DNA from: Theileria orientalis strain Shintoku
Taxonomy: Eukaryota > Apicomplexa > Aconoidasida > Piroplasmida > Theileriidae
Assembly: GCF_000740895.1 (NCBI RefSeq)
Contig: NC_025261.1
Span: 1,364,001 to 1,428,000 of the forward strand
DNA length: 64,000 bases
Reading direction: 5' to 3'
In this document: positions 46,217-64,000 of the stretch, one piece after another
How the letters are laid out: each line of letters begins with the position of its first letter
How positions within the stretch are numbered: the stretch's first letter is position 1
Program-made: the position numbers and the translations under genes
Notes under the pieces: generated by a model
Database searches by the model: none
What the model saw: the letters and a program-made list of their open reading frames with translations, nothing else
What the model was told of the DNA's origin: nothing

Positions 46217-46565
46217 CTCTGCGCTCTCTCTGCACTACTCGGTGCTTCAGCGCACACTACTCTTACAACTGTATAAAAATAATTAGCGTATAATATATAT
46301 ATATATACTAAATGGATGCTAGAGCTATGGACACACAAATTGAATTTTTTGAACTCAAGAAGGGTCATGAGTTCTTAGTGATTTTTATAGGCAAGCCTAC
46401 ATAAATTCCAGAAACTGTTCTTCTGGATACAAGTGAGTATTTCGACCAGGTTGAGTGTGGCCGTAAACGATTTTTATTTGTTTATTTTAGTATTTAAGGC
46501 TTCAAAATAGTTTAGGTTGTCAATCCGGAGAGGATTGTAATAATTTACTCGATAATAAAAGTTGT
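46217..46565. other. Convergent intergenic region
   Basis: About 350 bp with a short TA microsatellite near 46296. A 30-codon frame at 46312 is not supported as a gene. Confidence 0.55.
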
Positions 46566-49500
46566 TTAGATCCAGCTATGACCTGATTGATATCCAAAGT
46601 CATATTTAGCGGTATCTTGTGGAGCGGGAGTTTGTTGACGGGTACCAGATTGTTGCGTATTACGTTGTTCAGATGTTTGAGCGTCACCAGTTGTACGAGT
46701 GTCGCTACCCGTATCAGATCGTTGACTATCTGTGCGAGTTTCAGTACCTGCAGCAGACGGCAAGCCATCTGCGAGATTCAATACATCGGGGCGGGCGTCA
46801 ACCGCACCTCGCGCTTGGGGAGAAGCTCCAGATCTTGGAACAGCCGCTGGATCAACTCCATTCACTGCCTTGGAAAAAACTGTCGGATCAGATGCCGGGA
46901 ACGCGGGCATCACAGTATTGGCTGGCGGATCCGCCTTCAAAGCGTCCGCCTCTTTGAGAGGCTCCGGCGCACCCAACAGAAGCTCCTTGAACTTGGCGGT
47001 CACGACCGCCTTGTTTGCGTGATTGTCCGGATCCACGTCCGCGGCACCCGCGAACTTGAACTTGACGAGCTCGTGGCCATTCACGAAGTACCAGTGGTGC
47101 GTCGGCTGGTCAGTCACGTTGTCCTTCTGCGCCAGGACAACCACCATCGGCACGACGTGGCCCTCCTTGAAGTACAAAAAGTATTGGGCGAAGGGGTACT
47201 TGAACCCCGTCTCCCTGACCTCACCCTGCAGCTTAACGAACGGCAGCGTGAAGGTGGAGTTCTCCGTGGCCATCGCGTGCCTGTAGAGCAGGAAGCCCTC
47301 GGGCACAGGGCTGTTGGTTGACGCCGGGTCGTGGAAGAACTCAACCGCGTCCACGAAGCGCCCCATGCTCACGTGCGAGAACTTGGTGTCAAGGTCCAGC
47401 ATCAGCGCGCCCTTGTGGAACTCAGAGACCCTGTGGTACTCGTACAGACGAGCGTTAAGCATGTCGAAGACGTCGTGGTCGTCGAGCTTGTCGAAGGTGT
47501 GGAAGTGCAGACGCCACTCGTTGGCGCCCGCGTACACGTAGTACCAGTGCTTGAAGACTGGCTTGTTGTAGCCCTTCAGCTTCTGCACCATCTCCATGAC
47601 AGCCGGGAAGCGCGCGTACCTGTCGGGGCTGTTCCTGAAGTAGGTGTACACTGCGTGCACTCCCACCAGCGGCAGCTTCAGGCCCACGTACCTGTTACCG
47701 TGCAGCGCCACGCTGTCCAGGCTGAAGTCGACCCAGCCCACTGGCGGGCTGAGCATCCTCGGCTTGAACTCCTGCTTCAGCATGTCGAGTCCGTCGACCA
47801 GGTCTGCGTCCTTGTCGACCACCACTGAGCCGAACTTGACCGTGTCATCTTGCTTCAGGTCCAGGCTGAACACGTTTGGCAGCATCGCCTTGGCTGCTGC
47901 CGCCAGTTCCGCCAACTTCTCGGTGAACTTGGCCAACAGATCCTCCATCGGCCCCAGGTTGTTCTTCATCTCCAGTCCGCGCATCAGGTTATAGAACGCG
48001 TCCAGCTCCTCCGTCTTCACCCACTTAAGGTCTCTGTGCACCCACACGTCGTAGTGCACCTTCTCCGCATCCGCTTCGTTCTTCAGAGTGAAGAGTGCGA
48101 ATGCGAAGGGCGTCTTCACGTTCTTCTCGTAGAACACTGTCATTCCTGCGTACCCTCCCACCGCGGGCTCAAATGGTGCTGCGAAGTCCAGGTCCACTCC
48201 TCCGTACATTAACTTCTTCACGTTGAACTTCTTTGCCTTCGCCACCTTCTTCACTTCAGTCTTCCCCTGCTCCGTGAAGCTGTGCACGAAGAACGGCGCG
48301 TGGTGGTGGTAGAGTTCAAATCCTGCGTTTTCCTCCGTCGGCGGCACTGGCCCAGAGTGTGCGACAAACGCCACGTCAACGAATGCTACTCCAGCTGGCA
48401 ACGTTGTGACTTCCGGCAACACGTTCAATTGCGATCCCTCTGCCACTACTGGTTTCGCAGGCTGTTGCGGTTCAGCTGGTCCCAGCCCGGCTGCAGCACC
48501 TGCTTGTGGTCCTCCAGGTTGTCCTGCGGCTGCAACTCCTCCTGCCCCAGGAACTCCGGTTGATGCCACGTTAGATGCAGCTGCAACTCCAGTTTGTGCA
48601 GTTCCAGCAGCACCTACACCTGCTTTAGCAGCAGCTCCTGCTCCTCCAACCTGTGCTGCGGCTCCCGCTCCTTGTGTTGCAACAGCTGGTGCTGGCACAC
48701 CCGTGGCTGTAGTCGGACCCGGAGTCACTGCTGCTTTAGCAGCTGGTAGCGTCTGCCCACCTGACTGCACAGTAGTCGTAACTTCACCGGTAGGACTAGT
48801 GGCAGTAACAGTGTTAACCGGTTGAGTAGGCTGACCAGTGACAACTTGTTGAGTAGATTGGGAACCTGCTTGATTAAGATTACCAGCTGTACCAGGAACG
48901 CCAACACCTGGAACTCCAACACCAGGTACTCCAACACCTGGGACGCCAGCACCAGCAGCACCAGAAGAACCAGAAGAACCACTGTTAACTGTCGTGACTG
49001 TGCTAGTGGTGCTAGTCGTGCCCTGACCAACAGTTGTACTCTGCCCATTGTTCTGATTTTGAGTTCCACCGTTGCCATTACCTGAAACCTCAGCTCCTCC
49101 ACGTATCGACGCCGGGTTAGTTGTGTCTGGAACACCCCCTTGGTGGACGGGCTGTGGCCCTAATCCCGCAACCCTACCTTCTCCAGGGTGTGGACCGGGA
49201 CCTGCCACTGGTGGCGTTGGGGCTCCTGGTTGAGATAGTGGTGTAACTCCTCTGGTCACCAGCGTGAAGCCCGCTTGACCCGCAACGCTTTGTCCGGACT
49301 GTGCTGCTGCACCAGCACGCGCTGGTTGGGGGGCTGCTGGTGCGGCGGGTCCAACCGTGTCGCCCGTTCCCAATGTAACCCTAGTTTGCACCACCGGATC
49401 TTCCAATACCACTTTTGCTCCGGGTGCCCCGGGCGCTGCTGTTCCTGCCAAAGGCGTCCTTGCTCCCGGAGTTCCTGGTCTCGGCAATGGTGCCGGTCCT

Positions 49501-52500
49501 CCTGGAGCGACTGCTGGCCTCAACGCTGGCTCAGGCGCATCTAGCACTCCTCCCTGCGATCCCGCGGGCCCTGGCACGTCTCTCGCTCCAACTCGTCCAC
49601 CCAGGAGTGCCGACGCTTCCACGTCGAGATCCGAAGGAGCTGGCCCTCTCGCTGGTGCTTCCGCTGGCGCTCTCACCGCTGGCACGAACACTCTCTCCAC
49701 GACGAAGTCGTTGCCGTTCGCCTTGTAGTTCAACAGTCCTGCCGTGCCCGTCACTTTTGCCAAGTCCAGCGTAAGCGGCACTGCGAACAGCGCCTCCAGC
49801 TCCCTAAGCTTATTAACCACTGCATCTGCTCCCTCCGGGACAAACCTGCTCCATGTTCCGTCCAGGTTCCACTGGAAGTAGTGTCCCAGGAACTTGCCCG
49901 GGTTCGCCTTTTCAAACTTCTTCCTGTCTCTCTCGTCCTGGTCGTCGTAGAAGACCAAGAGCAGCGGCTTCTTCGACGCTTTTGACGTGAAAACGTGCAT
50001 GAAGTAGAACACGGTATCGTCTGGCAGGCCATCTGATGGGTAATCCACTCCGTTCAGCCTCAGCTTTCCCAACTTGAAGGGCACCTTTTCGTGGTGCTCC
50101 AGCTGATTTTCGCCCAACTTGGCTTGCACTTGTCTGAAAGTTTCAAACTCTGCTGACTTGAACAACTCCGGCAGCACCTCTGGTCCGTCCGACACGTAGT
50201 ACGACCTGTTGTTGTAGTAATTGTGTCTTCCGTTCGGCTTCGCCAGGTCGAACACGTACACGTCATTCAGGTTATTCAGGTGCTCAAGCTCCTCGTCCAG
50301 GTTCACCACCGTCGCCTTCGCCCACGTATCGTTCGTCTTATTGTACGAGAAGAAGACTGGCGCCTTTGCGTGCAGCCCCAGCTTCAACATCAGTGGGTTC
50401 GTCGACCACGAGTAGAACGCCAGCGAGCTCGCCAGCCTACTCTTCGTCGAGGCTCCGGCTTCCACTGGGAGTGCGTACTCCTTTCCTCCCAGCAGGAACT
50501 TGTTTGCGTAGTACCTTCCTCCGTTGACGAACGAGTGCTTTCCGAAGTTATATCCGTTCGGCACCGTGTCGAACCTCGCCACCTTCACGAACTTTCCCAG
50601 CGTCAAATATCCGTGGAACAGGTCTTCGTAGTTGAACAGCGCCGGCTTAAATTCCCTCTTTGCATTAACTGGTGCTTCCACGTTTGCTACGGGCACTTGT
50701 GGCGCCGCCGGTCGAACTGGCGATCCTGGGCCACCAGCTCTAGAAACTAGCTGAACATCTGTTGCAGGTTTTGCCGGTGCAGGTGATGTTACGGTTGCAC
50801 TGGGTTGTTGTGCTTGCGTTGTAAGTGCATTGCTTGCTTGTGCTTGGGTTGTGGCTGCACCTGGTTCAGCTCCAGCTCCGCCAGCTCCGGCTCCAGCACC
50901 CACTCCGCCTAAGCCAGAAGCAACTTGCCCGGCTCCCTGAAGGTTAGAGGTTTGTTGCACGTTTGCAGCCGACGATACTACTGGAGCTTGAACTGGAGTA
51001 ACTTGCGGTTCGACAGCACCAGCACCAGAGCCAGCAGCCTTAGCTGCTGCTGCAGCCGCTGCGGCTGCGTCAGGTGCGCCTGGAGCTGCCGGCTCTGGTG
51101 CAGGACTAGCGACCGGCGTGCCTGGTGCCGTTGACGCATCTCCTGGCGCCGGGACTACCGCTGCCGCTGCCTTCGCCGACTCTGGAACAGGTACTGCCAC
51201 CACTTTCACTTGCGGCACGAGCTCCATCTGCCTCAAGAACTTCGTGTTAAGGTGTGGCACCCACTCTTCCGAGTGACTCGCCACCAGCGTCATCTCATGC
51301 ACCAGGTTGTCCAGGAATGCCGACACTGCAGTCCTCGATACGTTTTCCGGCATCCAATGTCCATTCGCATCTGGCGCGAAGAACCTGACGAAGCCTGCGT
51401 TGTTCACTTCGAGGAGCAGTGGCACCGCGTCCTCGTAGAAGTAGGCTGCCACGTAATCTGCCTTCAGCGCCGGGAGATCTTCCATCTGCAGTCCACCAAA
51501 CACCCACCTCGTCATCAGGAAGTTCTCTCCCACAGCCAGCTTATGCTCATATCTTGCGTACGTGTGTGCTGTGCTGAAGAACGTCTTCTCCACCAACATC
51601 TTCGGGAGACCGTAGGTGCCCTCTCTCTTTCCCAGATCAACCAGCGCCGGTTGTGCCACCTTTGCCAACCTAAGTGCGAGTGTCTCATTGTCCAATTTTG
51701 CTCCCTTGGTGTAAAGGGTCGTCCAGAAGCCGCTGCTAGTCACATGGAAGTAGTTGTAGACGTCCTTATACTCTGCCGCCTTTTGGGGACTTGTTGTTGC
51801 CGGCGTAACCAATACATTCGTCTTCACCTCTGCAAACACTGGTGCGTAGAACCCCTCTGGACTGAACACGTGCACTTCCTTCACATCTCCGGGCGGCAAC
51901 TCCAGCTCCAGTGCGTCAAAGTCCCAGCCGAAGTTCAGCATCTTCACCACTTGGTGTCCCGCGTCAGGCCACTCAAACGTGTATCCCACCAGCCCGTCTG
52001 GCAACTTCAATCCTTCCGGCTTATAGTCCACCAGCTTCAGGTCAGTCACAACCCCGAACTGTGTACTCAACGTCTTGTTTCCGAAGTCCAGGTACTTCGT
52101 TGCAAAGTGCGGACTCAGCTTTTGGTACAACATTTGCTTATTGGCGAGCGCAAATTCAACTCCCAAATCGAACACTGTTGTCCAGTGCTCTCCTCCGAAG
52201 AAGAAGTAGTTCAGGTAATCTTTCGTGGCAGTTCCGAACTTGAGTGCAGCGTGCACCGGCACTCCACTAAACCAGTGCACGGTCACTGACGTGAACCCTC
52301 CGTCCTTCGTCACAAATCCCACCTTCTTATCTCCGACCATGAGCACTAGTGTCTTCTTAGCATGCGAAGCTGCTGCAGTTGCTCCTGCGTTAACCGTTAC
52401 CGGGAACGTGTGGTCATATACTTCAAAATTCCCATTCTGTGCTGCTGGCGTAGTACGTGCCACCGTGAATGTCACCTGCTCCTTGGGGTTGTAGGATGCT

Positions 52501-55500
52501 TTTGCGTCCAACTTCACCACGAACGTCGTGCTCCTTACAGCATCCAGCGTCTTCAGCAGCTCCAGCAACTCCTTTTCGGGCAACTTCACGTCTGTCGTCT
52601 TCACGAACAGCAGTGGCGCTCCTGATCCAGCTGCTCCTCCTGTCTTATCAGGGGCCAACGCCTGGTTGAACTTGTAGTAGTGGTACCTCGGCGCCGCCCT
52701 CGGGTGCTTAAGTGTCGTCGCCGCCACTTCTACTAGCAGCGGGAACCTATCCAGATTCGCGAATACCTTTACCTCGCGGACGAACCCCAGTGCGTGCAGC
52801 GACCTCAGCCCTGCTGCTCCGAACAGGTTCAGGTCGTCCAGCAGGAATGCTGGTGCGAACACTGAGGTCGACGCGTGCACGAACACTCTGTAGTTCGTTC
52901 CCAGCAGTCCTGCGTCCACCACTCTCATCGTCAGCTGCCCGCTTCTGTACTTGAACGCCGTTCCCAGCCCTGTGTCCATTCCCACGTCCACTGACGCTTC
53001 GTACGTGAACGCGTTCCTTGCCAGCGTTGCCATTTCAAACATCAGCTGTTCACTCGGCTCATCCGCCACTGACTTTGCCAGAACCCACTCGAACTCGCGT
53101 GCCAGCCTGTAGAACTTGTGTGCTGACGGCGTCTTCAGGAGCGCCATCACTGGGTACGTGTCGTCCAGCCAGAAGACTGTGAACTTTTCCACTTTGTTCA
53201 TCTCAAAGCCCACGAGCTTGTGTTCCCCGAGCGTGAAGGCTGCGACGTATGGCGCCAGTAAGCTGGTCGCCGGGTTCCCTGTTCCCACCACCGTCTTCAG
53301 CTGCGGCACGTGCGTGTACGCCTTCATCCTACTGACTTCCTTCGGACTCGCCTCAACCAGGAAGTTGAGCGTTTTTCTTGTTCTTGTATTTGCATCACCT
53401 TGACCTGCAGCTGAATCGGCCACTTCTTGACCATTAGCATTTTCAACTCTATTCCACACCTCGTGGGTGACCTTGTTCGCCAGGTTAACTGTCACCTTCC
53501 TATCGAACGTCTTTTCCGCCTCCAGAAGCTTTTTCTTCAGTTCTTCTACTGCCAGTTCAGTTGCATTTGTCATCGGTTCCCACTTTCCTGCCTTGTGGAA
53601 GAAGTAGTGGTGCATTGCTGTTGCAACTGCCGGTGCTGGTTGTGAAGCTACTGGGCCAGATGGCTGTTGTGCAGGTGCAGCTGCTGGCGGCGGCGTCAAC
53701 ACAAAGTGGAACCCAGCTGGCACATCGTCCGATCCTAGGAACGTGTTCACTGATGTCACTGTCCCTTCTGGCAGTACCAGCTCCAGCAGCGTGTTGTTGT
53801 ACTTGACCTTTCTGAACGTGAACGCAGTTGGCTTTGTCCCTGAAGCCCCTCCAGTGTTTGGTGTTTCCAGCAACTTATGTTCATACTTCTTGAAGGTATC
53901 CAATCCTGCATCTGTTTTTTCGTTTACCAGGACGTCCTTTTCGTAGTTCTTGTATCCTGCCTTCGCTGTCAGCTCCACTGTCACCAGACCTGCTGCCTTC
54001 GCCTTCAGAGCCAGCAACCTCGCCTTCAGCGCTTCCTCGTTAAACTCTCCCAAGTCCACTGCGTTGAACACTGCTGCGAAGTTCGTTTCAAAGAAGACTG
54101 ACTTCTTGTCAAAGGTCAGCCCGTGCAGGAGCACTGGCTCATCCATGTACGTGTACGCCGTCAGCGCGTTCAGGTGGTGCGTTGCCAGATCCGTTGCCGT
54201 CAGCACGTCAGAGTTGAACTGCAGTGCTCCCAGCAGGAACGGGTACATCAGGTCTGCCACTGTGTACGTGTTGCGTGCGAACCCTGTCAGGGCGGCGTCT
54301 GCCAGCTTGACGTGGTCGAACAGGAACACTTCCGGCGTCGACTCCAACGCCAGGTCCAGCGCGAACTCGTTCTCGAGGCCGTCATCTACGTCCTCCAGCA
54401 CTGCCAGGACCTCGTCGTCCTCCAGCAGCGTCTCCGTGCTAAAGTCGAACAGCCACCTGTACTTGTCGAAGACGTGCCACTCGTACGCTGCCGGACTCAC
54501 TGTCTTCAGACCCAGCAGCTTCGGCTCATTCCCCTTGAAGCCCAGGTACACTGCGCTCAGCAGCTTGTTGTGCGGCAGTCCCACCACGTCTTTCGAGCCC
54601 TTCATAAACTTCGACACTGTGAACGTCTCATTATCTCCCAGCGTGTGCGTGTACAAGCTCCACGTTCCTCCCAGGTCCAGATGTGCCACCTTCATCTGCA
54701 GTCCTGACGCCACATTGTAGTTATTTCTCATTTCCATGTTAAATTCAAGCACCGATCCCATTTTGTTCGCCACTGTGGCCACGAGTTCCGTCACCTGCTG
54801 TGCGTTTAGGTCTGTTGCGTCTGGCGGAAGCACGTGTCTCGAGAGGCCTCCTTGTGGGTTCAGAGTGAAATACTTGGGAACTGAGTTTGCCTTGACTACC
54901 GCGGGAGAATCTCCTTTGAAATACACTGCCACTTTATTCACGTTGCCGCAGTCCAAGCCCGTCAGAACTTCATCTCCGCAGGTGAGCGACCCCAGTTTCT
55001 GTGCCGACGGCAGTGTGTGCAGCACTCCTTTCATTCCATCCGACACTCCTTCCAGCTTTGACAGTGCCACATTCACCGTTCCTGCTCCAACTGCTGGTTT
55101 AAGTGTGTACGTTGCTGCTGTATCTGCTTCATGCTTCTTACAGACATCCAATGACGATACTGCTGTCAACTTTTTCCTCAGTTCTTCCAACTTCTCTCCG
55201 ACCTTCGAGTCATTATCGAATGCGAACCTTCTCCACTTCGATTCTGCCAGCGTGTTTGCGAAGAACAGCGTGTTTCCCTCTTCCATCTTCAACGCTGCTA
55301 CCAGTGGAACGTACTTGTAAACGTACACTTCCATTCCTACAGCGTTAAAGTCCATTGGGTATGCCACTTCAGGTCTATCAGTAGCAGGAGGCTCAGGTGC
55401 AACAGATTCATTTTCTTTCAAAGGAACGTGGGTCAGATTAAGGTCAAAATCAAAGTGCTTCAGCTTTCCCAGTGGGAACGGCGCCGACATGGTGTGCAAC

Positions 55501-57806
55501 ATCATGTCAAACACTCCTCCTCCGTACTTAGATTGTGAGGTTGCGTTGGTCACTGTGACTGTCACTGGCCCTGTCCTGTATGCTCCTGCTCCGTGACCCA
55601 CTTGCAGTGTCACCGATCCCAATGTTGCCTTTGCAGTATCCAATACGTTTTTCAGCCTATTAGTTTGTCCATCTCCTACTACAGTGTATTCAACCTTAAC
55701 CCATTTCTTAGATTCTCCATTGAAGGAGTAGTAGTGGTTAACTGCCTTGGTCGTCGTTGTGGCTGCAACTGGAGACGATGCTTGGAGGGTTGTTGCAGCG
55801 GTAGCCTGCACACCAGCACCTCCAACACCAACTCCTGGAGCGGCAGGAACTCCGCCTGCAGCTACACCAGGAACGGCACCTGGCGCTCCGGGAACACTGG
55901 GTTGACCGGCTCCGCCACCGGCGACACCGCCACCAACACCTGCTACGCCAGGTACGACACCACCAGCTCCGGCACCTTGTGCTTGTGATGTAGGCAATTG
56001 AGATGGATTCGGAACAGGAGCAGCAGGCGTTGTGTTAGATGTAAGCACCCTCGTGGTTCCTGTCAGGTGCACCAACAGTGGCGTATCCAGGAACCAGTAG
56101 ACCTTCGCGTTCGTTACGCCTGTTAGCTCCTCCAATCCCTCTGTTGTAACATCCTTTCCCACTGCCACAAGTTTCTGAAACTTGAAGGCTTCGTTATTCT
56201 TCCTGTTATGCTGATACATGGTGTATGCCTTCAATTCAGTTCCAGGATCCTGCTTCGCAACCTTCAGAAGCTTACCCACTGACAGGTAGTCGCTCTTCAT
56301 CACCACGTCTACGACGTACTTGTCGTTGGTGCTAACCAGCTTCTTGTTTTCTGCGTCCAACTTTTTAAGCACTGCTTCTGTGTCCTTCAGAGTCTCCGTG
56401 AGCATAACTCTCGACCAGAAGCCGAACCCATTGTTCGAGTAGAACACTCTTTTTGTCGAGAGACTGCCCGAGCCTGACATGTTCATCTGGACCAGAAGCG
56501 GCACTTCATCCGAGAAGAACACCGAGACTTCATTCACTCGTGCGAACGGAAGTCCGTTTTGCGGCGTCCCCGAGTTGAGGAAGTTTCCCACGAAATGCGA
56601 TTTTCCGGTGGCGAACCTGTGGGTGTACTTGGGGAACCCACGGGGCGAGTCGGGTGCCTGGCCACTCACTCTCACCAACACTTCGTTGGTGGTGTATGTG
56701 ACGTCAGCTGCCGCGCCCTTCTTTCCCAGGTCCAAGGTTAGCGGCACTCCCAGGTTATTTTTGAGCAGCGTGAGCGTCGACCTCACCTTTTCCACGGGCT
56801 CGTTGAGCCAGTTGTTCGCGTCCAGGTTGTACACGAAGTGGTCCTTCGTTCCACCCACGAGGTCCAGCTCCGCCAGCAGCGGTGTGTTGTGCCACCAGTA
56901 TACTGCCACTGATGTCAGCGGCTTTTTGGGCAGCACCAGATCTGTTAGCGCTGCACCGGAAACCAGCAACTTTTTCAGCTTAAACGGCTTTGCGACTTCA
57001 CTCCCTGCCTCCAGCAGCTTGTGCGTCACCTTCATGAAGCCTGCCTGCGTGAACGGCCTCTTGTTGAGCGTGAAGGTGGTGGGGAGGCCGCCGAATTCCG
57101 AGGTGTATGTGCCCGTCGACTCATCGAGGAACTCGTCCAGGTGCAACGTCACTACGTTTCCGAACAGTGTGTTCACCTCGTCGAGCTTTCCTGCTAATAC
57201 TGCCTGGTCCAAGTCGTTGGTGTGGTCCACCATCACTCTGGACCACCTCAGACCCACTTCTGTGCGATTAGCTGAGAAATGGTAAAACTTTGTGACCGCG
57301 GGTTGTCCCGTTTGATTCACCGTTTTAAATGTCAAAAATAAAAGTGTGTTCTGCCACCAGTATGCTGCGAGAGTCGCCACTGGGTGCTCAAACGTCGGCA
57401 GCCTCGACACTGCGTCGAAGACCACCTCTGTGCCCTTGAAGGGCGAGGGGAGTGTGTGTGTCAGCTTTGTATATCCGGGTGCGTCCTCCAGGTCCGAGGT
57501 CACCACGGTGACCGTCTGGCCCACGGACTGATAGTTTGTTTTAGCTCTAGCATCAAGAAGGTAAGATCCAGTCAGGTTTCTCATATCTTCGACGCTGGAA
57601 TCTCTCATGAAGGTTACGACATTAAGAACGCCAGCTGCGGCGCCTTGTGCGGGAAGTTCTGGAGCTGCCGTCGAGTCTGCCTCGGCGGGCTTACTCTCCT
57701 CGGGTTTGGCTCCGCCCTTCTTATGTAAGAAGACGGCCAAAACCACGATAAGAACCACGGCAGCGGCGGCGCCTAATAGAAAAGAAACCAATTTACCCGT
57801 GTTCAT
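46566..57806 (-). CDS. Giant signal-anchored repeat protein, FAINT-like, single exon (3746 aa)
   Basis: An 11.2-kb uninterrupted frame. Residues 7-28 are one hydrophobic helix flanked by Lys on both sides, a signal anchor without cleavage site; no other transmembrane segment is seen. About 20 degenerate modules of 140-170 residues follow. Each has the pattern Y-x-H-x-L (YTHTL-like), F-x-L-x-K-L, a short G-x-x-L, then VxVYFWxDxPLLVxL, a YYFF strand and GxWxxx, ending in a helix and VxLDLxxK. The pattern resembles FAINT/DUF529-type Theileria repeats, but membership is inference. Modules are separated by Pro/Ala/Gly/Gln-rich linkers at about 590-690, 1369-1396, 2199-2385 and 2709-3129, the last with elastin-like VPGVG units. 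The Ser/Thr/Gln-rich C-terminus (3626-3746) ends in HSWI. A collinear paralogue lies at 60589. The function is unknown; surface or parasitophorous exposure is plausible. Confidence 0.85.
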   Translation of the reverse strand: MNTGKLVSFLLGAAAAVVLIVVLAVFLHKKGGAKPEESKPAEADSTAAPELPAQGAAAGVLNVVTFMRDSSVEDMRNLTGSYLLDARAKTNYQSVGQTVTVVTSDLEDAPGYTKLTHTLPSPFKGTEVVFDAVSRLPTFEHPVATLAAYWWQNTLLFLTFKTVNQTGQPAVTKFYHFSANRTEVGLRWSRVMVDHTNDLDQAVLAGKLDEVNTLFGNVVTLHLDEFLDESTGTYTSEFGGLPTTFTLNKRPFTQAGFMKVTHKLLEAGSEVAKPFKLKKLLVSGAALTDLVLPKKPLTSVAVYWWHNTPLLAELDLVGGTKDHFVYNLDANNWLNEPVEKVRSTLTLLKNNLGVPLTLDLGKKGAAADVTYTTNEVLVRVSGQAPDSPRGFPKYTHRFATGKSHFVGNFLNSGTPQNGLPFARVNEVSVFFSDEVPLLVQMNMSGSGSLSTKRVFYSNNGFGFWSRVMLTETLKDTEAVLKKLDAENKKLVSTNDKYVVDVVMKSDYLSVGKLLKVAKQDPGTELKAYTMYQHNRKNNEAFKFQKLVAVGKDVTTEGLEELTGVTNAKVYWFLDTPLLVHLTGTTRVLTSNTTPAAPVPNPSQLPTSQAQGAGAGGVVPGVAGVGGGVAGGGAGQPSVPGAPGAVPGVAAGGVPAAPGVGVGGAGVQATAATTLQASSPVAATTTTKAVNHYYSFNGESKKWVKVEYTVVGDGQTNRLKNVLDTAKATLGSVTLQVGHGAGAYRTGPVTVTVTNATSQSKYGGGVFDMMLHTMSAPFPLGKLKHFDFDLNLTHVPLKENESVAPEPPATDRPEVAYPMDFNAVGMEVYVYKYVPLVAALKMEEGNTLFFANTLAESKWRRFAFDNDSKVGEKLEELRKKLTAVSSLDVCKKHEADTAATYTLKPAVGAGTVNVALSKLEGVSDGMKGVLHTLPSAQKLGSLTCGDEVLTGLDCGNVNKVAVYFKGDSPAVVKANSVPKYFTLNPQGGLSRHVLPPDATDLNAQQVTELVATVANKMGSVLEFNMEMRNNYNVASGLQMKVAHLDLGGTWSLYTHTLGDNETFTVSKFMKGSKDVVGLPHNKLLSAVYLGFKGNEPKLLGLKTVSPAAYEWHVFDKYRWLFDFSTETLLEDDEVLAVLEDVDDGLENEFALDLALESTPEVFLFDHVKLADAALTGFARNTYTVADLMYPFLLGALQFNSDVLTATDLATHHLNALTAYTYMDEPVLLHGLTFDKKSVFFETNFAAVFNAVDLGEFNEEALKARLLALKAKAAGLVTVELTAKAGYKNYEKDVLVNEKTDAGLDTFKKYEHKLLETPNTGGASGTKPTAFTFRKVKYNNTLLELVLPEGTVTSVNTFLGSDDVPAGFHFVLTPPPAAAPAQQPSGPVASQPAPAVATAMHHYFFHKAGKWEPMTNATELAVEELKKKLLEAEKTFDRKVTVNLANKVTHEVWNRVENANGQEVADSAAGQGDANTRTRKTLNFLVEASPKEVSRMKAYTHVPQLKTVVGTGNPATSLLAPYVAAFTLGEHKLVGFEMNKVEKFTVFWLDDTYPVMALLKTPSAHKFYRLAREFEWVLAKSVADEPSEQLMFEMATLARNAFTYEASVDVGMDTGLGTAFKYRSGQLTMRVVDAGLLGTNYRVFVHASTSVFAPAFLLDDLNLFGAAGLRSLHALGFVREVKVFANLDRFPLLVEVAATTLKHPRAAPRYHYYKFNQALAPDKTGGAAGSGAPLLFVKTTDVKLPEKELLELLKTLDAVRSTTFVVKLDAKASYNPKEQVTFTVARTTPAAQNGNFEVYDHTFPVTVNAGATAAASHAKKTLVLMVGDKKVGFVTKDGGFTSVTVHWFSGVPVHAALKFGTATKDYLNYFFFGGEHWTTVFDLGVEFALANKQMLYQKLSPHFATKYLDFGNKTLSTQFGVVTDLKLVDYKPEGLKLPDGLVGYTFEWPDAGHQVVKMLNFGWDFDALELELPPGDVKEVHVFSPEGFYAPVFAEVKTNVLVTPATTSPQKAAEYKDVYNYFHVTSSGFWTTLYTKGAKLDNETLALRLAKVAQPALVDLGKREGTYGLPKMLVEKTFFSTAHTYARYEHKLAVGENFLMTRWVFGGLQMEDLPALKADYVAAYFYEDAVPLLLEVNNAGFVRFFAPDANGHWMPENVSRTAVSAFLDNLVHEMTLVASHSEEWVPHLNTKFLRQMELVPQVKVVAVPVPESAKAAAAVVPAPGDASTAPGTPVASPAPEPAAPGAPDAAAAAAAAAKAAGSGAGAVEPQVTPVQAPVVSSAANVQQTSNLQGAGQVASGLGGVGAGAGAGGAGAEPGAATTQAQASNALTTQAQQPSATVTSPAPAKPATDVQLVSRAGGPGSPVRPAAPQVPVANVEAPVNAKREFKPALFNYEDLFHGYLTLGKFVKVARFDTVPNGYNFGKHSFVNGGRYYANKFLLGGKEYALPVEAGASTKSRLASSLAFYSWSTNPLMLKLGLHAKAPVFFSYNKTNDTWAKATVVNLDEELEHLNNLNDVYVFDLAKPNGRHNYYNNRSYYVSDGPEVLPELFKSAEFETFRQVQAKLGENQLEHHEKVPFKLGKLRLNGVDYPSDGLPDDTVFYFMHVFTSKASKKPLLLVFYDDQDERDRKKFEKANPGKFLGHYFQWNLDGTWSRFVPEGADAVVNKLRELEALFAVPLTLDLAKVTGTAGLLNYKANGNDFVVERVFVPAVRAPAEAPARGPAPSDLDVEASALLGGRVGARDVPGPAGSQGGVLDAPEPALRPAVAPGGPAPLPRPGTPGARTPLAGTAAPGAPGAKVVLEDPVVQTRVTLGTGDTVGPAAPAAPQPARAGAAAQSGQSVAGQAGFTLVTRGVTPLSQPGAPTPPVAGPGPHPGEGRVAGLGPQPVHQGGVPDTTNPASIRGGAEVSGNGNGGTQNQNNGQSTTVGQGTTSTTSTVTTVNSGSSGSSGAAGAGVPGVGVPGVGVPGVGVPGTAGNLNQAGSQSTQQVVTGQPTQPVNTVTATSPTGEVTTTVQSGGQTLPAAKAAVTPGPTTATGVPAPAVATQGAGAAAQVGGAGAAAKAGVGAAGTAQTGVAAASNVASTGVPGAGGVAAAGQPGGPQAGAAAGLGPAEPQQPAKPVVAEGSQLNVLPEVTTLPAGVAFVDVAFVAHSGPVPPTEENAGFELYHHHAPFFVHSFTEQGKTEVKKVAKAKKFNVKKLMYGGVDLDFAAPFEPAVGGYAGMTVFYEKNVKTPFAFALFTLKNEADAEKVHYDVWVHRDLKWVKTEELDAFYNLMRGLEMKNNLGPMEDLLAKFTEKLAELAAAAKAMLPNVFSLDLKQDDTVKFGSVVVDKDADLVDGLDMLKQEFKPRMLSPPVGWVDFSLDSVALHGNRYVGLKLPLVGVHAVYTYFRNSPDRYARFPAVMEMVQKLKGYNKPVFKHWYYVYAGANEWRLHFHTFDKLDDHDVFDMLNARLYEYHRVSEFHKGALMLDLDTKFSHVSMGRFVDAVEFFHDPASTNSPVPEGFLLYRHAMATENSTFTLPFVKLQGEVRETGFKYPFAQYFLYFKEGHVVPMVVVLAQKDNVTDQPTHHWYFVNGHELVKFKFAGAADVDPDNHANKAVVTAKFKELLLGAPEPLKEADALKADPPANTVMPAFPASDPTVFSKAVNGVDPAAVPRSGASPQARGAVDARPDVLNLADGLPSAAGTETRTDSQRSDTGSDTRTTGDAQTSEQRNTQQSGTRQQTPAPQDTAKYDFGYQSGHSWI

Positions 57807-58455
57807 TATGATATTTAATAAGATGTAAACATTAGAAATTGATGTTGCGAGATTATCGGGGTCAAAATACTAAATTCAGATTAATCCAAAAAATGTGTAA
57901 AGCAAAATGTCAACACATTTTTGAAATTCTCGTGTAACATTAAAAGTTCTATAGCGTGAATGTATTAGAACCCGAAAAAGGAGGAAAACCTTAAAATTAT
58001 ACAAAAATAAACAAATGAATGGAATGAATAAAATGTCTATGGGGATAATCTAAAACGCCGTCATAGATGTGTAGCCTGTAAAGGCTCCAGTTGAAGAGCA
58101 CCAATTTTAGTCTTTATGCAAATGATTGCCTCAGCGTCCACTCAATTGCTCCTTTTTTGTTATATGACATTAGGACACCTCATTCCCGGTCAAAATTATA
58201 TCGGGTCGTATACACATCTATTATCTAGTCAGCATCATACTAATCCTGAAATTGGTAGCAAACTTAATAAATTGTATATTTTATTATTTCAACTTTCGTT
58301 TAAACATTATTTATGGGATTTAAAGAAGAATTTCTATTATTCAATCACTAAAATGGAAGATTATATTCTATCAATAAGTGTGTATATTAGCATAATATTA
58401 TTTTTGGATTAAAAACGAAAGTTTATAACGGATCAACTCCAATCTAATCGTCTTC
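57807..58455. other. Intergenic region
   Basis: About 650 bp between two minus-strand genes. A 98-codon plus-strand frame at 58116-58412 has a hydrophobic start but no other sign of being a gene. Nothing else was recognised. Confidence 0.5.
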
Positions 58456-59532
58456 TCATAGATCATCCTTCAGAGTCAATTTCCACCCTTCTTTGTGCCT
58501 TTTATAGTTGTTTATGCTCCTGCCGTTGTTAGAGTTCACAATTCTCAGGTTCGTTGTCACGTATTTGCCATTTTTAGAGTACAACCAGATCTTGTCAACA
58601 TAGTCTCCCACCTTACTCTCCCATATAGGCATATTCCCCTCCCCAATGTTATGTACCCAGGTTCCCAACACGGGAGTGTAAACATACGTGTCGATACCGG
58701 AAATCTCATATTTCTCCATTTTAAACCTACTCGAATCTAAACTTTTAATATCAAACAATGGAAGGGTGAAATCGTGCGAGTCCAACTTGAGTTTATATGA
58801 CTTATTTGATATTGGAGTCCACTTGTCACCCTTGCGCTCAAAATGCAAAGTCTCAGGGTCCTGAGAGTTATCTAAAACTAATTCTGCAAAGATCGGAGTA
58901 TTTCCGGAGTAGCAAACTGTAATTTGGAAAAGATTTGACTCACTACTCTTTCCCCAAACTACCTGGTTCCCGCAGACCACTCTGTCCACTTTTACTCCCA
59001 GTTTTGGCGAATAAGTGCCATAAACTATGCCGTTACGCTTTGATTTGTGAACGGTGTATAAATCCGTGTTTGTTTTTGAACTTAAATCGAAGACGCTGCT
59101 TTTATGTATCGAATACGATTCTTGATCGAAGTGGTACTGGTATGGGAGCTTACTTGACTCAACAGCATGCCATACGTCATCTTCTTTCTTAAAATATAAA
59201 TCACTAACCAAATCTCGGTCATTTAGCTTGATGTGTAAGTATAGTGACGAATTATCGAAGAGGTGTGCTATCACTTCTGAACATTTAGTATCGCCGCTAG
59301 TTCCGTCCCAAATTAAACTCCTATCGTCAATAACTCTAACAATTTGAGATTTATTGGTAGGGGTGTATTTGTGTGTTAATATGTTAGATAAATCTTTCTT
59401 TTTTAAAACTATATAAGTTGAATCTAGAGGTTTTGATAAATCTAGAGTTATCGATTCTAGGGATGCCACGCACACATTAAGGCTTAAAGCTGCAAAAAAC
59501 CATAAAATCACTTTAAAACTCAAACTAGGCAT
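58456..59532 (-). CDS. Secreted FAINT-like protein with three modules (358 aa)
   Basis: Residues 1-23 are a clear signal peptide (FKVILWFFAALSLNVCVAS). The rest is three consecutive modules of about 105-110 residues starting near 27, 140 and 245. Each has an ITLDL- or VFDL-like strand, a Y-x-x-HKYTP or TYVYTP-type strand, VDRVVCGNQVVWG or VIDDRSLIWDG (a VxxVxxGxxxxW motif), then a strand before KxDDVWHAV or KGDKWTPIS. This VxxVxxGxxxxIW pattern with a final W is typical of FAINT/DUF529. Single exon with AT-rich codons, unlike the two GC-rich giants beside it. The function is unknown. Probably secreted into the host cell or parasite surface space. Confidence 0.75.
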   Translation of the reverse strand: MPSLSFKVILWFFAALSLNVCVASLESITLDLSKPLDSTYIVLKKKDLSNILTHKYTPTNKSQIVRVIDDRSLIWDGTSGDTKCSEVIAHLFDNSSLYLHIKLNDRDLVSDLYFKKEDDVWHAVESSKLPYQYHFDQESYSIHKSSVFDLSSKTNTDLYTVHKSKRNGIVYGTYSPKLGVKVDRVVCGNQVVWGKSSESNLFQITVCYSGNTPIFAELVLDNSQDPETLHFERKGDKWTPISNKSYKLKLDSHDFTLPLFDIKSLDSSRFKMEKYEISGIDTYVYTPVLGTWVHNIGEGNMPIWESKVGDYVDKIWLYSKNGKYVTTNLRIVNSNNGRSINNYKRHKEGWKLTLKDDL

Positions 59533-60588
59533 ATATTAGGCTCACATGGGTTAGGAATCCACCGCCTCTGATCAACAAGTTTAGATTCCTAAATGTGTAT
59601 GGGGATTAGAAATTAAAGTAACGTTACACATGTATACTAAAATGAAATGAGATAGTTAAAAAAAACACACGATTCATGTACAAACATCTATAGTCACAGA
59701 ACAACATATAGAAAAGTATAAATTTATGAGTAAGGAGGGTGAATATCTATAAGTGAGCATAAAAACTATGTATCTATAAGATATATTAAAATTTATTATT
59801 CAGTTCTATCAATTATTTAATAGGTTTATATACGTACAATGGTGATAGTATTTGGTTGAGTGATGTTAATTTATGGGTATAAATATGTGGAGTGCATGAT
59901 TGGATGTTGTAAACAAAGACACATTTTATCAATTCCTGACAAATTCTATTTGAAAGACATTATAGAATAAAAATAGAAAATTAAAAAAACAAAACACCAT
60001 ACCAAATTAAATAATTTAAGATCGCCATCAAAATATAAATTGTCCATTTTGTATATAAAAATTGAAAAACATCAGACACATATCATTGAAATAAAAAAAA
60101 ATTAGTAAATATGTCCGAAAAATTCATAACCTGATTAAAACCACCAATAATTCAAAAATTTGCAAAAAATGTGTAGGATGACCCAATAAATTTGACAATT
60201 GAAAATAAATGTCCCCTAGACGTTTTAATAAAAGAAACTTAAAACATAGAGTTGGGACGCAAATGTATAGTTAATAAATCGGTTGGACTAAGGAATTTAA
60301 TAACATTTATAGGCTACACATCAAGCCTGAGAATACACTTTCCCCATAACAACGTTGTTATTTTATACTGTTGCATTAGTCTAGTATAAATATTGTTGTC
60401 CCAAATGCCGACTAAATTGTACAACCACAATTAGTCATGTATGTATATATATAAAAAAGTAACATTTACAAAATGTGTTTATAGACACTTTTTTTGGTAG
60501 GAACAATTAAGATAACTTTAGGAGTTTGACAATATCTTCTAAAGTTAATTTATATTTCTTTTTAATGTTTATGTTTTAAAAAAACGAT
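59533..60588. other. Intergenic region, divergent promoters
   Basis: About 1.05 kb of AT-rich DNA between the 358-aa gene and the truncated giant paralogue. No gene or RNA recognised. Confidence 0.55.
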
Positions 60589-63500
60589 ATGAAACCACTT
60601 AAATTGTTTTCATTTTTGTTGGTTTTCCTAGCATTGGTTGTTCTCGCAGTTTTCCTATTCTTCATATTTAGGAAACCCGATACGAAAAAGGAAACTGAAG
60701 AGACAAAGACAGAGGAAACAACAAAAACACAACCAGTGCTAGCCGGCAACGTTTTGAACGTGGTTACACATCTGTCCAACGACAGAGTTAACCTGCTGGC
60801 GTCAGGCCTAGGAAATTCATACCTGCTCGACGCAAGGTCGAAAGCAAACTCATACACATTTAATGGAGTCACAGTTTCAGTAGTTTCAGGAGAAGTGAGT
60901 AACCAGCCAGGGTACTCGAAATACACACACACTCTGCCCAAGGCATACAAGGGCACCAAGTTGGTGTTCGACGCGGACGCGACACACGATTCATTCGAGG
61001 ACCCAGTCACAAAACTCACAACATACTTTTGGTTCAACACAATGCTATTCATGACATTCACAACACAGTCAGAGGGCGAGGCGCCCGCACTAAAATACTA
61101 CCACTTCTCGTCGCACGTGTCGAACAACACACTGAAGTGGGACCGCTTCGACAGAGAACCTACGACGGAGCTGGACCCATCAGTGCTCGTCGCTAAGCTC
61201 GACGAGGTTAACCTGGCAGCAGGAAACGTAGTGGCACTGCACCTGGACGAGTACCTGGAGGAGGCGACCGGCTCGTACAGCACGACGCTTAACTCAGTGA
61301 CCTCGAAGGTGAGTCTCCTGAGGAGGTCGTCGTCATCGACGGGATTCGTCAAGGTGACGCACAAGCTGATGCAAGAGGTGGAAAACGGAAACAGCAGACC
61401 GTTCAAGCTGAGGAAGCTGAGGGTCTCAGGCACGGAGCTGGCAGACCTGGCGCTGACGACGAAGCCAGTCGTCTCAATGTCGGTCTTCTGGTGGTACAAC
61501 ATGCCGCTGCTGGCGGAGCTGGACCTGCACGGAGGAGACCGAGAACACCTGGCCTACAACGTGGACACGAACAACTGGGAGAAGGAAAACGTGGAAAAGC
61601 TGAGAGCGAAGCTCTTCCTGCTGAAGAATAAGCTGGGTGAGCCGGTGACAGTGGACCTGTCGAAGTCAGGAGACCACGACCAGACGTACACGAGCAACGC
61701 AGTGCTGGTGCGCGTGAGTCCGGGCGCCACAGCGTTGAGAGAAGTGAAGAAGTACACACACAGGTTCACCACAGGAAACGCGCACTTCGTAGGCTCGTTC
61801 GTTAACTCAGGCACGGCGCAGCTGGGGTTGCCGGTGATGAGAGTAGTGGAGGTGGCAGTGTACTACGTGAAGGGAGTGCCGCTGCTGCTGAAAGTTAACC
61901 TGGCGACAGCAGGAAGCCTGGCCTCGAAGTTCCGCTACTACACGAGCAACGGCTACCGAGTGTGGACGGTGGCGGAGCTGACGAAGGAGGTGGCGACGAC
62001 GGAGGCGCTGCTGAAGAAGCTCAACGAGGAAAACCAGAGACTGCTCCAGGAAAACGACAAGTACGTGCTCGACGCAATGATGCTGGCAAACTACATGTCG
62101 ACAGGAAGAGTAGTGGAGGTGACGAAGGAAACATTGACCGACATGCCGGGCTACTACGTGTACAAGCACCAGGCGTTCAACGGAGTGCCATTCAAACTCG
62201 AGAAGTTCACAGTGGGAGGAAAGGACGTGGGCCCCTCGGTGGCCACAGTGGAGGGCGTGGCGTACGCGAAGATGTACCTCTTCCTGAACATGCCGCTGCT
62301 GCTGCACGCGCACGTCCCGCCAGCAGCACAAGGCCCGGCAGGAGCAGACACATACTTCTCGTTCAACGCGACCACCACGGAGTGGACGAAGACGGAAGCG
62401 GATCTGTCGTCAGCCGCAGCGCTGAAAGAGCACCTGTCGAAACTCAGAGGAACTATGAGCTCAGTGACGCTGAACCTGGGCCACACGGAAGGAGAGTACA
62501 AGTCGGGCATGGTGACGGTGCAGGTGGTGGAAGCGACGCCGTACGAAAATGACCCGCCGACGTCGTACACGAAGAGAGTGCACGTCCTCACGCCGGCGTT
62601 CCCAGTGGACGTGGTGAAGCACTTCGACTTCAACCTGGTGCTGGCGAAGAAGGAGACGGCGAGCAGCCCCTACGAGACGCCGTCGAAGGACCCGCTGCTG
62701 CCGAAGAACTTCGTGGTCTCGAAGGCGGAAGTGTACTACTTCGGAGACGTGCCGCTGTACTTCACAGTGCACGGAACGCACGGGACGCCGCTGCGCTTCT
62801 CGAACGTGTTCAGAGGGACGCTGTGGAGAGAGGATGACATGCACACGAGAATGTCGCTCTCAGACATGCTCGTAGCGCTGAGCGCCGAGCTGCGGGCAGC
62901 GGCAAGGTTCGACGTCTGCAAGGACGCACCATCCGACACAGTGGTGACGTACAAGCTGAGGCACCTGGGCTCGAAGGAGACCACGAACGTGACGGTGACG
63001 AAGACGGAGGGGGCGGACGGAGTGACGCTGCTGGCGCACAAGATGCCAGAGTCAGTGACGCTTAAGTTCACGACGCTGACGTGCGGAGAGCACGTGCTGA
63101 CGGGCCTGTCGATGGACGACGTGTCGAAGGTGTTCCTGTACAGAAGGTACAAGGCGCCGCTGTTCCTGAAGCTTAACTCGGACCCGAGGTTCTTCGCACT
63201 GAGCGGAGACGGGGGGCTGACGCGGTACGTGCCCCCGGCAGGAGCGACGGACATGACGGAAGAGCAGGTGAAGGCGAAGGTGTCGGAGCTCTCGACGATG
63301 GTGGGAAAGGTCTTCGACCTCGACCTGATGAGCAAGGCGGACTACACGCTCCTCAACTCGCACTTCACAGTGACGGAAACCACAGTGGGAGGCTTCAAGA
63401 GGCGCCTGCACGCGCTGAAGACCGCGGGAAGGACGCCGCTGCCGTTCACACTGAGGTCCCTCGTGCACGGCACCAAGGACGCAGTGATGTACCCGACGGG

Positions 63501-64000
63501 TTTGAAGGTGGCCTGGGTCGCAGTGTTTTTCAAGAACGAAGAGCCGTTCTACCTGCAGGTTAAGGAGACCTCACGGCCCGTGGTAACCGAGGCGCCAGCT
63601 TCAACACTACCAGCTGCCTTACCCGCACAAACACAACCAGCATCACAAACACAACCAGCATCACAAACACAACCAGCATCACAAGCACAACCAGCAGTAC
63701 AATCACAAGCAGCAGTACAATCACAAGTACAAGCACCCGCACAACCTGGAGCCAATCCGGCAGCAGCAGGTGTTAATCCAGCAGTGCAGCCACTTGCTCC
63801 AGGAGTTGCAGCTGTACCTGCGCCCGTACCCGGAAGACCAGGATCGACAGTCGTACAGCTACCAGGACCTGCTACTCCTGCCCCAGGAGCTCCAGGAGCA
63901 CCTGCTGGGCCGCCTGCATCTTCAGCAGCTCCCCAAGCGGCGCAGGCTGGACCACCTGCCGCAGCAGCACCCTCATCCGCTCCCGCAGCAGTTCCAGGCC
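60589..64000 (+). CDS. Second giant signal-anchored repeat protein, 5' part only (at least 1137 aa)
   Basis: The frame opens with ATG at 60589 and is open to the window edge, so the 3' end is missing. Residues 5-27 are a single hydrophobic signal anchor followed by RKPDTKKE. From about residue 50 it is collinear with the minus-strand giant: NVLNVVT, SYLLDARSKAN, PGYSKYTHTLP, YFWFNTMLFMTF, VVALHLDEYLEE, then matching modules up to about 1000. From about 1005 it enters a Pro/Ala/Gln tract with four near-perfect 18-bp units encoding QTQPAS (about 63630-63700), then a Pro/Ala/Gly linker. Coding DNA is strongly GC-rich apart from the first 150 bp. It is divergent from the 358-aa gene. The function is unknown; it is clearly a paralogue of the 46566-57806 gene. 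Confidence 0.85.
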   Translation, partial: MKPLKLFSFLLVFLALVVLAVFLFFIFRKPDTKKETEETKTEETTKTQPVLAGNVLNVVTHLSNDRVNLLASGLGNSYLLDARSKANSYTFNGVTVSVVSGEVSNQPGYSKYTHTLPKAYKGTKLVFDADATHDSFEDPVTKLTTYFWFNTMLFMTFTTQSEGEAPALKYYHFSSHVSNNTLKWDRFDREPTTELDPSVLVAKLDEVNLAAGNVVALHLDEYLEEATGSYSTTLNSVTSKVSLLRRSSSSTGFVKVTHKLMQEVENGNSRPFKLRKLRVSGTELADLALTTKPVVSMSVFWWYNMPLLAELDLHGGDREHLAYNVDTNNWEKENVEKLRAKLFLLKNKLGEPVTVDLSKSGDHDQTYTSNAVLVRVSPGATALREVKKYTHRFTTGNAHFVGSFVNSGTAQLGLPVMRVVEVAVYYVKGVPLLLKVNLATAGSLASKFRYYTSNGYRVWTVAELTKEVATTEALLKKLNEENQRLLQENDKYVLDAMMLANYMSTGRVVEVTKETLTDMPGYYVYKHQAFNGVPFKLEKFTVGGKDVGPSVATVEGVAYAKMYLFLNMPLLLHAHVPPAAQGPAGADTYFSFNATTTEWTKTEADLSSAAALKEHLSKLRGTMSSVTLNLGHTEGEYKSGMVTVQVVEATPYENDPPTSYTKRVHVLTPAFPVDVVKHFDFNLVLAKKETASSPYETPSKDPLLPKNFVVSKAEVYYFGDVPLYFTVHGTHGTPLRFSNVFRGTLWREDDMHTRMSLSDMLVALSAELRAAARFDVCKDAPSDTVVTYKLRHLGSKETTNVTVTKTEGADGVTLLAHKMPESVTLKFTTLTCGEHVLTGLSMDDVSKVFLYRRYKAPLFLKLNSDPRFFALSGDGGLTRYVPPAGATDMTEEQVKAKVSELSTMVGKVFDLDLMSKADYTLLNSHFTVTETTVGGFKRRLHALKTAGRTPLPFTLRSLVHGTKDAVMYPTGLKVAWVAVFFKNEEPFYLQVKETSRPVVTEAPASTLPAALPAQTQPASQTQPASQTQPASQAQPAVQSQAAVQSQVQAPAQPGANPAAAGVNPAVQPLAPGVAAVPAPVPGRPGSTVVQLPGPATPAPGAPGAPAGPPASSAAPQAAQAGPPAAAAPSSAPAAVPG

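What the first reader, a model, noticed from the sequence alone, without database searches (positions are those of the whole stretch)
46566..64000. Pair of giant, collinear, signal-anchored repeat proteins in a lineage-specific block
A 3,746-residue single-exon protein (minus strand) and a partial plus-strand protein share order and motifs from the N-terminal anchor onward. Both have one N-terminal hydrophobic helix with no cleavage site, about 150-residue modules with a VxVYFWxDxPLLV core, and Pro/Ala/Gln linkers. A 358-residue secreted protein with related-looking modules sits between them. The architecture suggests a very long extracellular or vacuolar filament anchored at its N-terminus (type II). 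I know of no described function. This is the best candidate here for an undescribed system, possibly an adhesion or host-interaction scaffold.
Basis: partly seen in the sequence, partly recalled or inferred. Interest (0 to 1): 0.8.

Follow-up and report, generated by a model that had tools for sequence, protein, structure and literature searches.

The report
Paired giant FAINT-like Theileria membrane proteins
Two neighbouring genes of a cattle parasite encode enormous membrane-anchored proteins built from 19 or so related domains, a design shared by three Theileria species and apparently made inside infected cattle cells, so they are probably a core structural part of the parasite and not a local oddity.

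Summary
The window lies in the Theileria orientalis Shintoku genome (length match). Giant 1 is an intact 3,746-codon frame; giant 2 runs past the window to 4,546 codons. They diverge head to head around a 358-residue FAINT protein, are collinear almost to their ends, and each has a strong N-terminal hydrophobic helix and about 19 modules. The 'lineage-specific' label fails: both have orthologues in T. parva (TpMuguga_02g00706, 02g00703) and T. annulata, and the tree puts their duplication before that species split. Giant 1 and six database orthologues or paralogues each score 19 modules.

No module tested reaches Pfam FAINT (0 of 35), yet profile-profile comparison with FAINT scores 36.2 against at most 9.5 for 200 shuffles, and the predicted modules repeat the FAINT strand order with one extra strand and a connecting helix. 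They are best filed as a divergent sister of FAINT, not as PF04385 members. Published T. parva immunopeptidome data hold four class I peptides from the pair, all from one sample, so the proteins seem to be made in infected cells. My reading: an N-terminally anchored modular scaffold, probably at the parasite surface. Topology, location and function are untested.

The parts
46566..57806 (-). Giant 1, single open frame, 3,746 aa; orthologue of TpMuguga_02g00706 and of T. annulata A0A3B0N959
   Evidence: length equals the longest annotated Shintoku exon, 11,241 bp
57723..57791 (-). Giant 1 N-terminal hydrophobic helix (uncharged run, residues 6-28)
   Evidence: hydropathy; helix 4-27 in the model (low pLDDT there)
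51324..57626 (-). Giant 1 modules 1-14 (residues 61-2161), spaced 5-35 residues apart except one 133-residue gap
50640..51323 (-). Giant 1 low-complexity linker (A/P/V/G-rich), residues 2162-2389
49833..50639 (-). Giant 1 modules 15-16 (residues 2390-2658)
48384..49832 (-). Giant 1 long low-complexity linker (G/A/P/V/T-rich), residues 2659-3141
47043..48383 (-). Giant 1 modules 17-19 (residues 3142-3588)
46569..47042 (-). Giant 1 C-terminal tail ending ...HSWI
58456..59532 (-). 358-aa protein between the giants with three FAINT domains (about 59149-59463, 58798-59115, 58465-58767) and a signal-like N-terminus
   Evidence: Pfam PF04385 E 1.8e-20, 3 stretches; positions; nine-strand model of the middle domain, pLDDT 91.5; signal-like N-terminus read by eye only
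60589..64000 (+). Giant 2, first 1,137 codons; frame continues to C2:1438229 (4,546 aa); orthologue of TpMuguga_02g00703 and of T. annulata A0A3B0MNA6
60604..60669 (+). Giant 2 N-terminal hydrophobic helix (uncharged run, residues 6-27)
60796..63603 (+). Giant 2 modules 1-7 (residues 70-1005)
63604..63999 (+). Giant 2 low-complexity linker, cut by the window end
   Evidence: read from the translation

Best explanation
The two genes encode an ancient pair of paralogous, N-terminally membrane-anchored giant scaffold proteins. Shown by sequence: each carries about 19 position-specific modules of a FAINT-related fold, grouped as 14 + 2 + 3 in giant 1, joined by low-complexity linkers and, in the giant-2 type, by an A/K/L/E-rich, coiled-coil-like insert of some 702-890 residues (coiled coil is my reading; no predictor was run). 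Shown by tree: the duplication predates the split of T. orientalis from T. parva and T. annulata. Inferred: the hydrophobic helix sends the protein into the secretory pathway and holds it at the membrane as a signal anchor, so that the module array projects from the parasite. In the leukocyte stage, which lies free in host cytoplasm, that would face host cytoplasm. There it would act as a fixed-length multivalent docking or coat scaffold, perhaps with the two giants side by side and with the small FAINT protein encoded between them. Rough certainty: architecture and ancestry 0.9; FAINT relationship 0.85; made in the T. parva stage that infects leukocytes 0.8; surface-facing scaffold 0.45.
For: Intact frames and orthologues. 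Two clades with 100/100 support, each holding T. orientalis and T. parva/T. annulata (midpoint root). Module count 19 in each of P0001-P0007 at iE<0.01, 20 hits in giant 2: (the profile was trained on these proteins). Models built from one paralogue group detect 8-12 modules in each protein of the other at E<1e-3 and none in reversed sequences. In-order mapping of 15 of 19 giant-1 modules onto giant 2, in an alignment that held only its first 3,137 residues, with order kept further on. FAINT relation. Modules more conserved than the rest (Shintoku giant 1 to Buffeli: 80% against 66%; to T. annulata: 45% against 39%). Expression: 4 of 74 curated BoLA-I peptides in PMC9699068 belong to the pair, exact matches. 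[quoted passage not shown] p104, with four FAINT domains, is a schizont surface protein that docks host EB1 (PMC3649978 passages).
Against: Topology is unresolved: N-flank charge 0 to +2 plus the amino terminus, C-flank -1 to +2 over 15 residues. Nothing here places the protein at the surface. All four peptides come from one sample (5350TP_rpt); giant 1's orthologue rests on a single peptide of middling predicted binding rank (1.11); the paper's abstract warns of many co-precipitated peptides, which it tried to remove; and class I also presented plainly internal proteins in the same table (helicases, ATP synthase). One FAINT protein, TA11945, was seen only inside the schizont (PMC11237503 passage). 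No expression evidence was found for T. orientalis; the main-text passages of the piroplasm proteome paper that I saw do not name the pair (supplements not readable here). No SxIP motif in any of 9 proteins. The four other AlphaFold models of the giant piece had mean pLDDT of only 56.9-68.7.
Confidence: 0.5

Rival explanations
1. Internal scaffold: the helix inserts N-out/C-in or sits in an organelle membrane (rhoptry, microsphere or ER type), and the giant array works inside the parasite. Host class I presents its peptides only because schizont proteins in general are sampled.
For: Positive residues directly after the helix; only 3 cysteines in 3,746 residues; sequon numbers like those of shuffled sequence (20 against a mean of 20.2 for giant 1); internal proteins in the same peptide table; TA11945 stayed inside the schizont.
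Against: [quoted passage not shown] The 358-aa neighbour looks secreted (by eye).
Confidence: 0.3
2. Antigenic display or immune decoy: a repeat-rich surface giant that mainly absorbs the immune response.
For: Four curated class I peptides from the pair; long low-complexity linkers.
Against: 33 of the 34 other modules aligned are only 11-28% identical to giant 1's second module; the exception, its giant-2 counterpart, is 51%. The count is constant and positions are conserved between species, modules more than linkers. Decoy repeats are usually near-identical and variable in number (general knowledge).
Confidence: 0.08
3. Bridge-like lipid carrier: the beta-rich modules with connecting helices line a hydrophobic groove, as in the N-terminally anchored BLTP1/Csf1 type (comparison recalled).
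For: N-terminal anchor, giant length, constant module number and repeated beta sheet plus helix. The FAINT model's recurrent weak fold matches are LolA lipoprotein-carrier half-barrels.
Against: Linkers of 133, 228 and 483 residues in giant 1, and an insert of 702-890 residues in the giant-2 type, break any continuous groove. No such carrier among the rows shown for the giant model, which does not exclude it.
Confidence: 0.07

Closest known systems
FAINT domain, Pfam PF04385 (DUF529)
   Same: Related profile. FAINT strand order beta1-beta9 recurs in the predicted modules. A FAINT gene lies between the giants.
   Different: 0 of 35 modules tested reach Pfam. The Trp that is invariant in my 28 FAINT domains is not conserved in the modules. 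One extra strand, an inter-module helix and a longer unit.
Theileria p104 (TA08425), schizont surface protein that binds EB1
   Same: Folded FAINT-type part plus low-complexity P-rich part; expressed in the leukocyte stage (PMC3649978 passages).
   Different: p104 has a predicted signal peptide, a predicted GPI anchor and an SxIP motif. The giants have an N-terminal hydrophobic helix, no hydrophobic C-terminus by hydropathy, and no SxIP in 9 of 9.
SVSP (subtelomere-encoded variable secreted proteins)
   Same: FAINT-type domains and low-complexity stretches (SVSP features recalled).
   Different: Giants lie near 1.42 Mb of a 2.217 Mb contig, have orthologues in each other species on the tree and keep an N-terminal hydrophobic helix.
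TpMuguga_02g00703 and 02g00706; MACJ_001536, MACJ_001538, MACK_001218 (named hypothetical or putative integral membrane proteins)
   Same: These are the orthologues themselves.
   Different: The search listings show no precomputed Pfam domain for any of them. The T. parva 02g00706 model begins inside module 2.

Membership tests
FAINT (PF04385) | Score above the Pfam cut-off of 20.7 bits | tested here: not met
   0 of 35 modules (of 39 found in the two giants) match FAINT at E<=10. No FAINT hit for giant 1, the two fetched parts of giant 2, P0005, P0006, P0007. P0002-P0004 and P0008 were not scanned.
FAINT (PF04385) | Profile similarity to FAINT domains beyond chance | tested here: met
   hhalign score 36.2, P 4.1e-7, probability 92.8%, against a maximum of 9.5 in 200 column shuffles and 8.0/8.6 for reversed profiles; score 31.9, P 2.3e-5, probability 76% on separate MAFFT alignments; scores 26.8 and 27.8 with giant-1-only and giant-2-only models. 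P values are for one comparison each
FAINT (PF04385) | Conserved Trp of the IW motif | tested here: not met
   Invariant in 28 FAINT domains; no conserved Trp column at that place in 35 modules
FAINT (PF04385) | Nine-strand FAINT topology | tested here: inconclusive
FAINT (PF04385) | Entry to the secretory pathway | tested here: inconclusive
   N-terminal hydrophobic segment; no localisation data
p104-type schizont surface protein | EB1-docking SxIP motif | tested here: not met
   0 of 9 proteins
p104-type schizont surface protein | GPI anchor signal at the C-terminus | tested here: inconclusive
   No C-terminal hydrophobic segment in any of 9 proteins by 19-residue hydropathy; no GPI predictor was run
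SVSP family | Subtelomeric position | tested here: not met
   C2:1410566-1438229 of 2,216,979
Bridge-like lipid transfer proteins | Continuous repeating beta-groove | tested here: inconclusive
   No match among the rows shown for a 600-residue model; mean pLDDT 73.3, coordinates not inspected

The most novel reading that the evidence does not exclude
Theileria parasites carry an undescribed, genus-conserved pair of fixed-length, N-terminally anchored protein arrays of about 19 FAINT-related domains each, which together form a structural coat or tether between the intracellular parasite and host-cell structures. The constant module number would act as a molecular ruler.
Probability: 0.2. Interest if true: 0.8.

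Novelty: new variant of a known kind. Interest (0 to 1): 0.55.

Why it matters
FAINT domains are a hallmark of Theileria secreted proteins and have no assigned function. This pair is unlike the expanded, scattered FAINT genes: collinear, ancient, and constant in module number in transforming and non-transforming species alike. That points to a core job shared by these species and gives two concrete genes, with peptides already reported from infected cattle cells, for asking what FAINT-type domains do. It also shows that Pfam-based FAINT counts miss a divergent, very large branch.

Tried and rejected

Dropped rows: module hits above iE 0.01 were not counted (in giant 1, 674-711 at iE 1.1; in giant 2, two hits at 0.11 and 0.087). 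P0008 lacks its N-terminus and was not in the module count. Alignment A2 used 35 of 39 modules: I left out giant-1 module 17 and three giant-2 hits. A4 used 28 of 32 FAINT domains at hand (I left out those of L012, L024, L027 and L034). The larger FAINT profile had 117 domain rows from the frames of 30 loci plus the 358-aa protein, some of them overlapping (L005 is that protein's own locus; L007 and L014 come from one gene); those 30 loci are the best 30 of 150 scored hits in this genome.

Full report
What is there. The window is C2:1364001-1428000 of a 9,010,364-base, six-contig genome. A published table gives that exact length for Theileria orientalis Shintoku, with a longest exon of 11,241 bp (PMC9323827, passages and table rows seen); 46566-57806 is 11,241 bp long. 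Giant 1 is one open frame of 3,746 codons on the minus strand. Giant 2 starts at 60589 on the plus strand and reads without a stop to C2:1438229, 4,546 codons. Since that is longer than the longest annotated exon, giant 2 must be annotated otherwise, split or with introns (inference). Their N-termini face each other with a 358-aa gene between them that has three FAINT stretches (E 1.8e-20).

Architecture. An iterated module profile found 19 modules in giant 1 and 20 hits in giant 2 at iE<0.01; two of the latter fall on one giant-1 module. Giant 1 and its six full-length database orthologues or paralogues (P0001-P0007) each give 19. Because that profile was trained on all of them, I made two independent models: one from giant-1-type proteins only, one from giant-2-type only. 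Each finds 17-18 modules per protein in its own group and 8-12 in the other at E<1e-3 (Z set to 9,000), and nothing in reversed sequences. BLASTP gives 13 segments between the giants: 7 in one order from N- to C-terminus, 6 weaker off-diagonal ones between different modules. Of giant 1's 19 modules, 15 map in order onto giant-2 modules in an alignment that contained only the first 3,137 residues of giant 2; the last four could not be mapped there. Giant 1 has long linkers of 133, 228 and 483 residues and otherwise gaps of 5-47; the giant-2 type (P0004-P0006) has one gap of 702-890 residues, and the matching stretch of Shintoku giant 2 is rich in A, K, L and E. Cysteine is rare (3 in 3,746). 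Each of the eight proteins with an N-terminus has a strong hydrophobic segment there; two also show one weak internal segment.

Ancestry. No Buffeli giant 2 appeared among the hits. The tree of nine N-terminal regions has two clades, each containing T. orientalis and T. parva/T. annulata, with 100/100 support (midpoint root; one of six inner branches, within T. orientalis giant 1, is unresolved). The duplication is therefore most simply older than the split of these species. Gene numbers (02g00703/02g00706; MACJ_001536/001538) suggest the pair has stayed adjacent, an inference from tag numbers only. Identity of Shintoku giant 1 to Buffeli is 80% inside modules and 66% in the alignable part outside. 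A single-sequence search also found a related 860-codon frame on contig 3 with its own N-terminal hydrophobic segment.

Relation to FAINT. None of 35 modules tested singly matches FAINT in Pfam at E<=10. A FAINT profile of 117 domain rows from this genome, compared with the module profile, gives hhalign score 36.2, P 4.1e-7, probability 92.8%; 200 column shuffles reach at most 9.5, and reversed profiles 8.0 and 8.6. Separate MAFFT alignments give P 2.3e-5, probability 76%. In direct searches the FAINT model has 8 hits at iE<0.01 in the giants and none in reversed giants, and the module model 5 in FAINT frames and none reversed; the best of these is the 358-aa protein, which is present twice in that set. 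AlphaFold2 gives a FAINT domain of nine strands at mean pLDDT 91.5. The first 600 residues of giant 1 come out at pLDDT 73.3 in the best of five models (others 56.9-68.7) as three complete units and most of a fourth, with the same order of strands, one extra strand, and a 14-18-residue helix before units 2-4 (my reading of the strings, no superposition possible). The Trp invariant in 28 FAINT domains is not conserved in the modules. I therefore call the modules a divergent sister of FAINT, not PF04385 members.

Expression. PMC9699068 (abstract, table rows and passages seen) reports 74 curated BoLA-I peptides from 68 T. parva proteins eluted from infected cell lines. Three are assigned to TpMuguga_02g00703 and one to 02g00706, all in sample 5350TP_rpt. 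All four match my orthologue sequences exactly. This makes it very probable that the pair is translated in infected cells; it does not show where the proteins sit, and giant 1's orthologue rests on one peptide. It is the only paper found for the tags searched; other identifiers gave none.

How it most likely works. The nearest precedent with a known role is p104: four FAINT domains and a disordered part, on the schizont surface, recruiting EB1 through SxIP (PMC3649978 passages). The giants share the folded-plus-disordered design and the stage, but lack SxIP in 9 of 9 and show no hydrophobic tail. My reading is a membrane-anchored, multivalent scaffold of fixed length. The constant module number and position-specific conservation argue for a structural job and against a variable antigen. 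Topology is open, because the charges beside the helix do not decide it, so an internal scaffold is the main rival.

Verdict. Interest 0.55.

Noticed in passing
G000 C2:1704822 to beyond 1729000 (L035-L037): An uninterrupted frame listed as 8,816 codons holds 31 FAINT-model hits at iE<0.01 in the part fetched, one of them possibly split by a fetch border. It may be the 26,436-bp longest gene of the published table (inference).
   Followed up: partly
[not shown]
   Followed up: partly
P0007 residue 2223 and P0008 residue 1921: A PxRKPR stretch just before module 15 is shared by the T. annulata and T. parva giant-1 orthologues and absent there from three T. orientalis giant-1 proteins. PxxxPR is a CD2AP-type SH3 ligand pattern (recalled), so this could mark a difference between transforming and non-transforming species.
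   Followed up: partly
P0008 (TpMuguga_02g00706): The T. parva model begins with MPLLVEFDL..., inside module 2, so its annotated start is probably too late.
   Followed up: no
P0004 (MACJ_001538): Two short stretches of the Chitose giant-2 model look like out-of-frame translation, probably annotation or sequencing error (read by eye).
   Followed up: no
46566-47042: Giant-1-type proteins end in WF or WI in 4 of 5 (Shintoku, Chitose, T. annulata, T. parva; Buffeli ends CI), a possible tail motif.
   Followed up: no
window 44744-46216: Actin-family gene (PF00022, E 3.7e-75) with a low-complexity insert next to giant 1.
   Followed up: no
window 6108-6266 and 10728-10904: Two further FAINT hits in other frames of the window.
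   Followed up: no
window 46001-64000: G+C in 2-kb steps is 51-58% over giant 1 (46-58 kb), 34% over the 358-aa gene, 45% then 60% over the start of giant 2, against 41.5% for the genome.
   Followed up: no
[not shown]
   Followed up: partly
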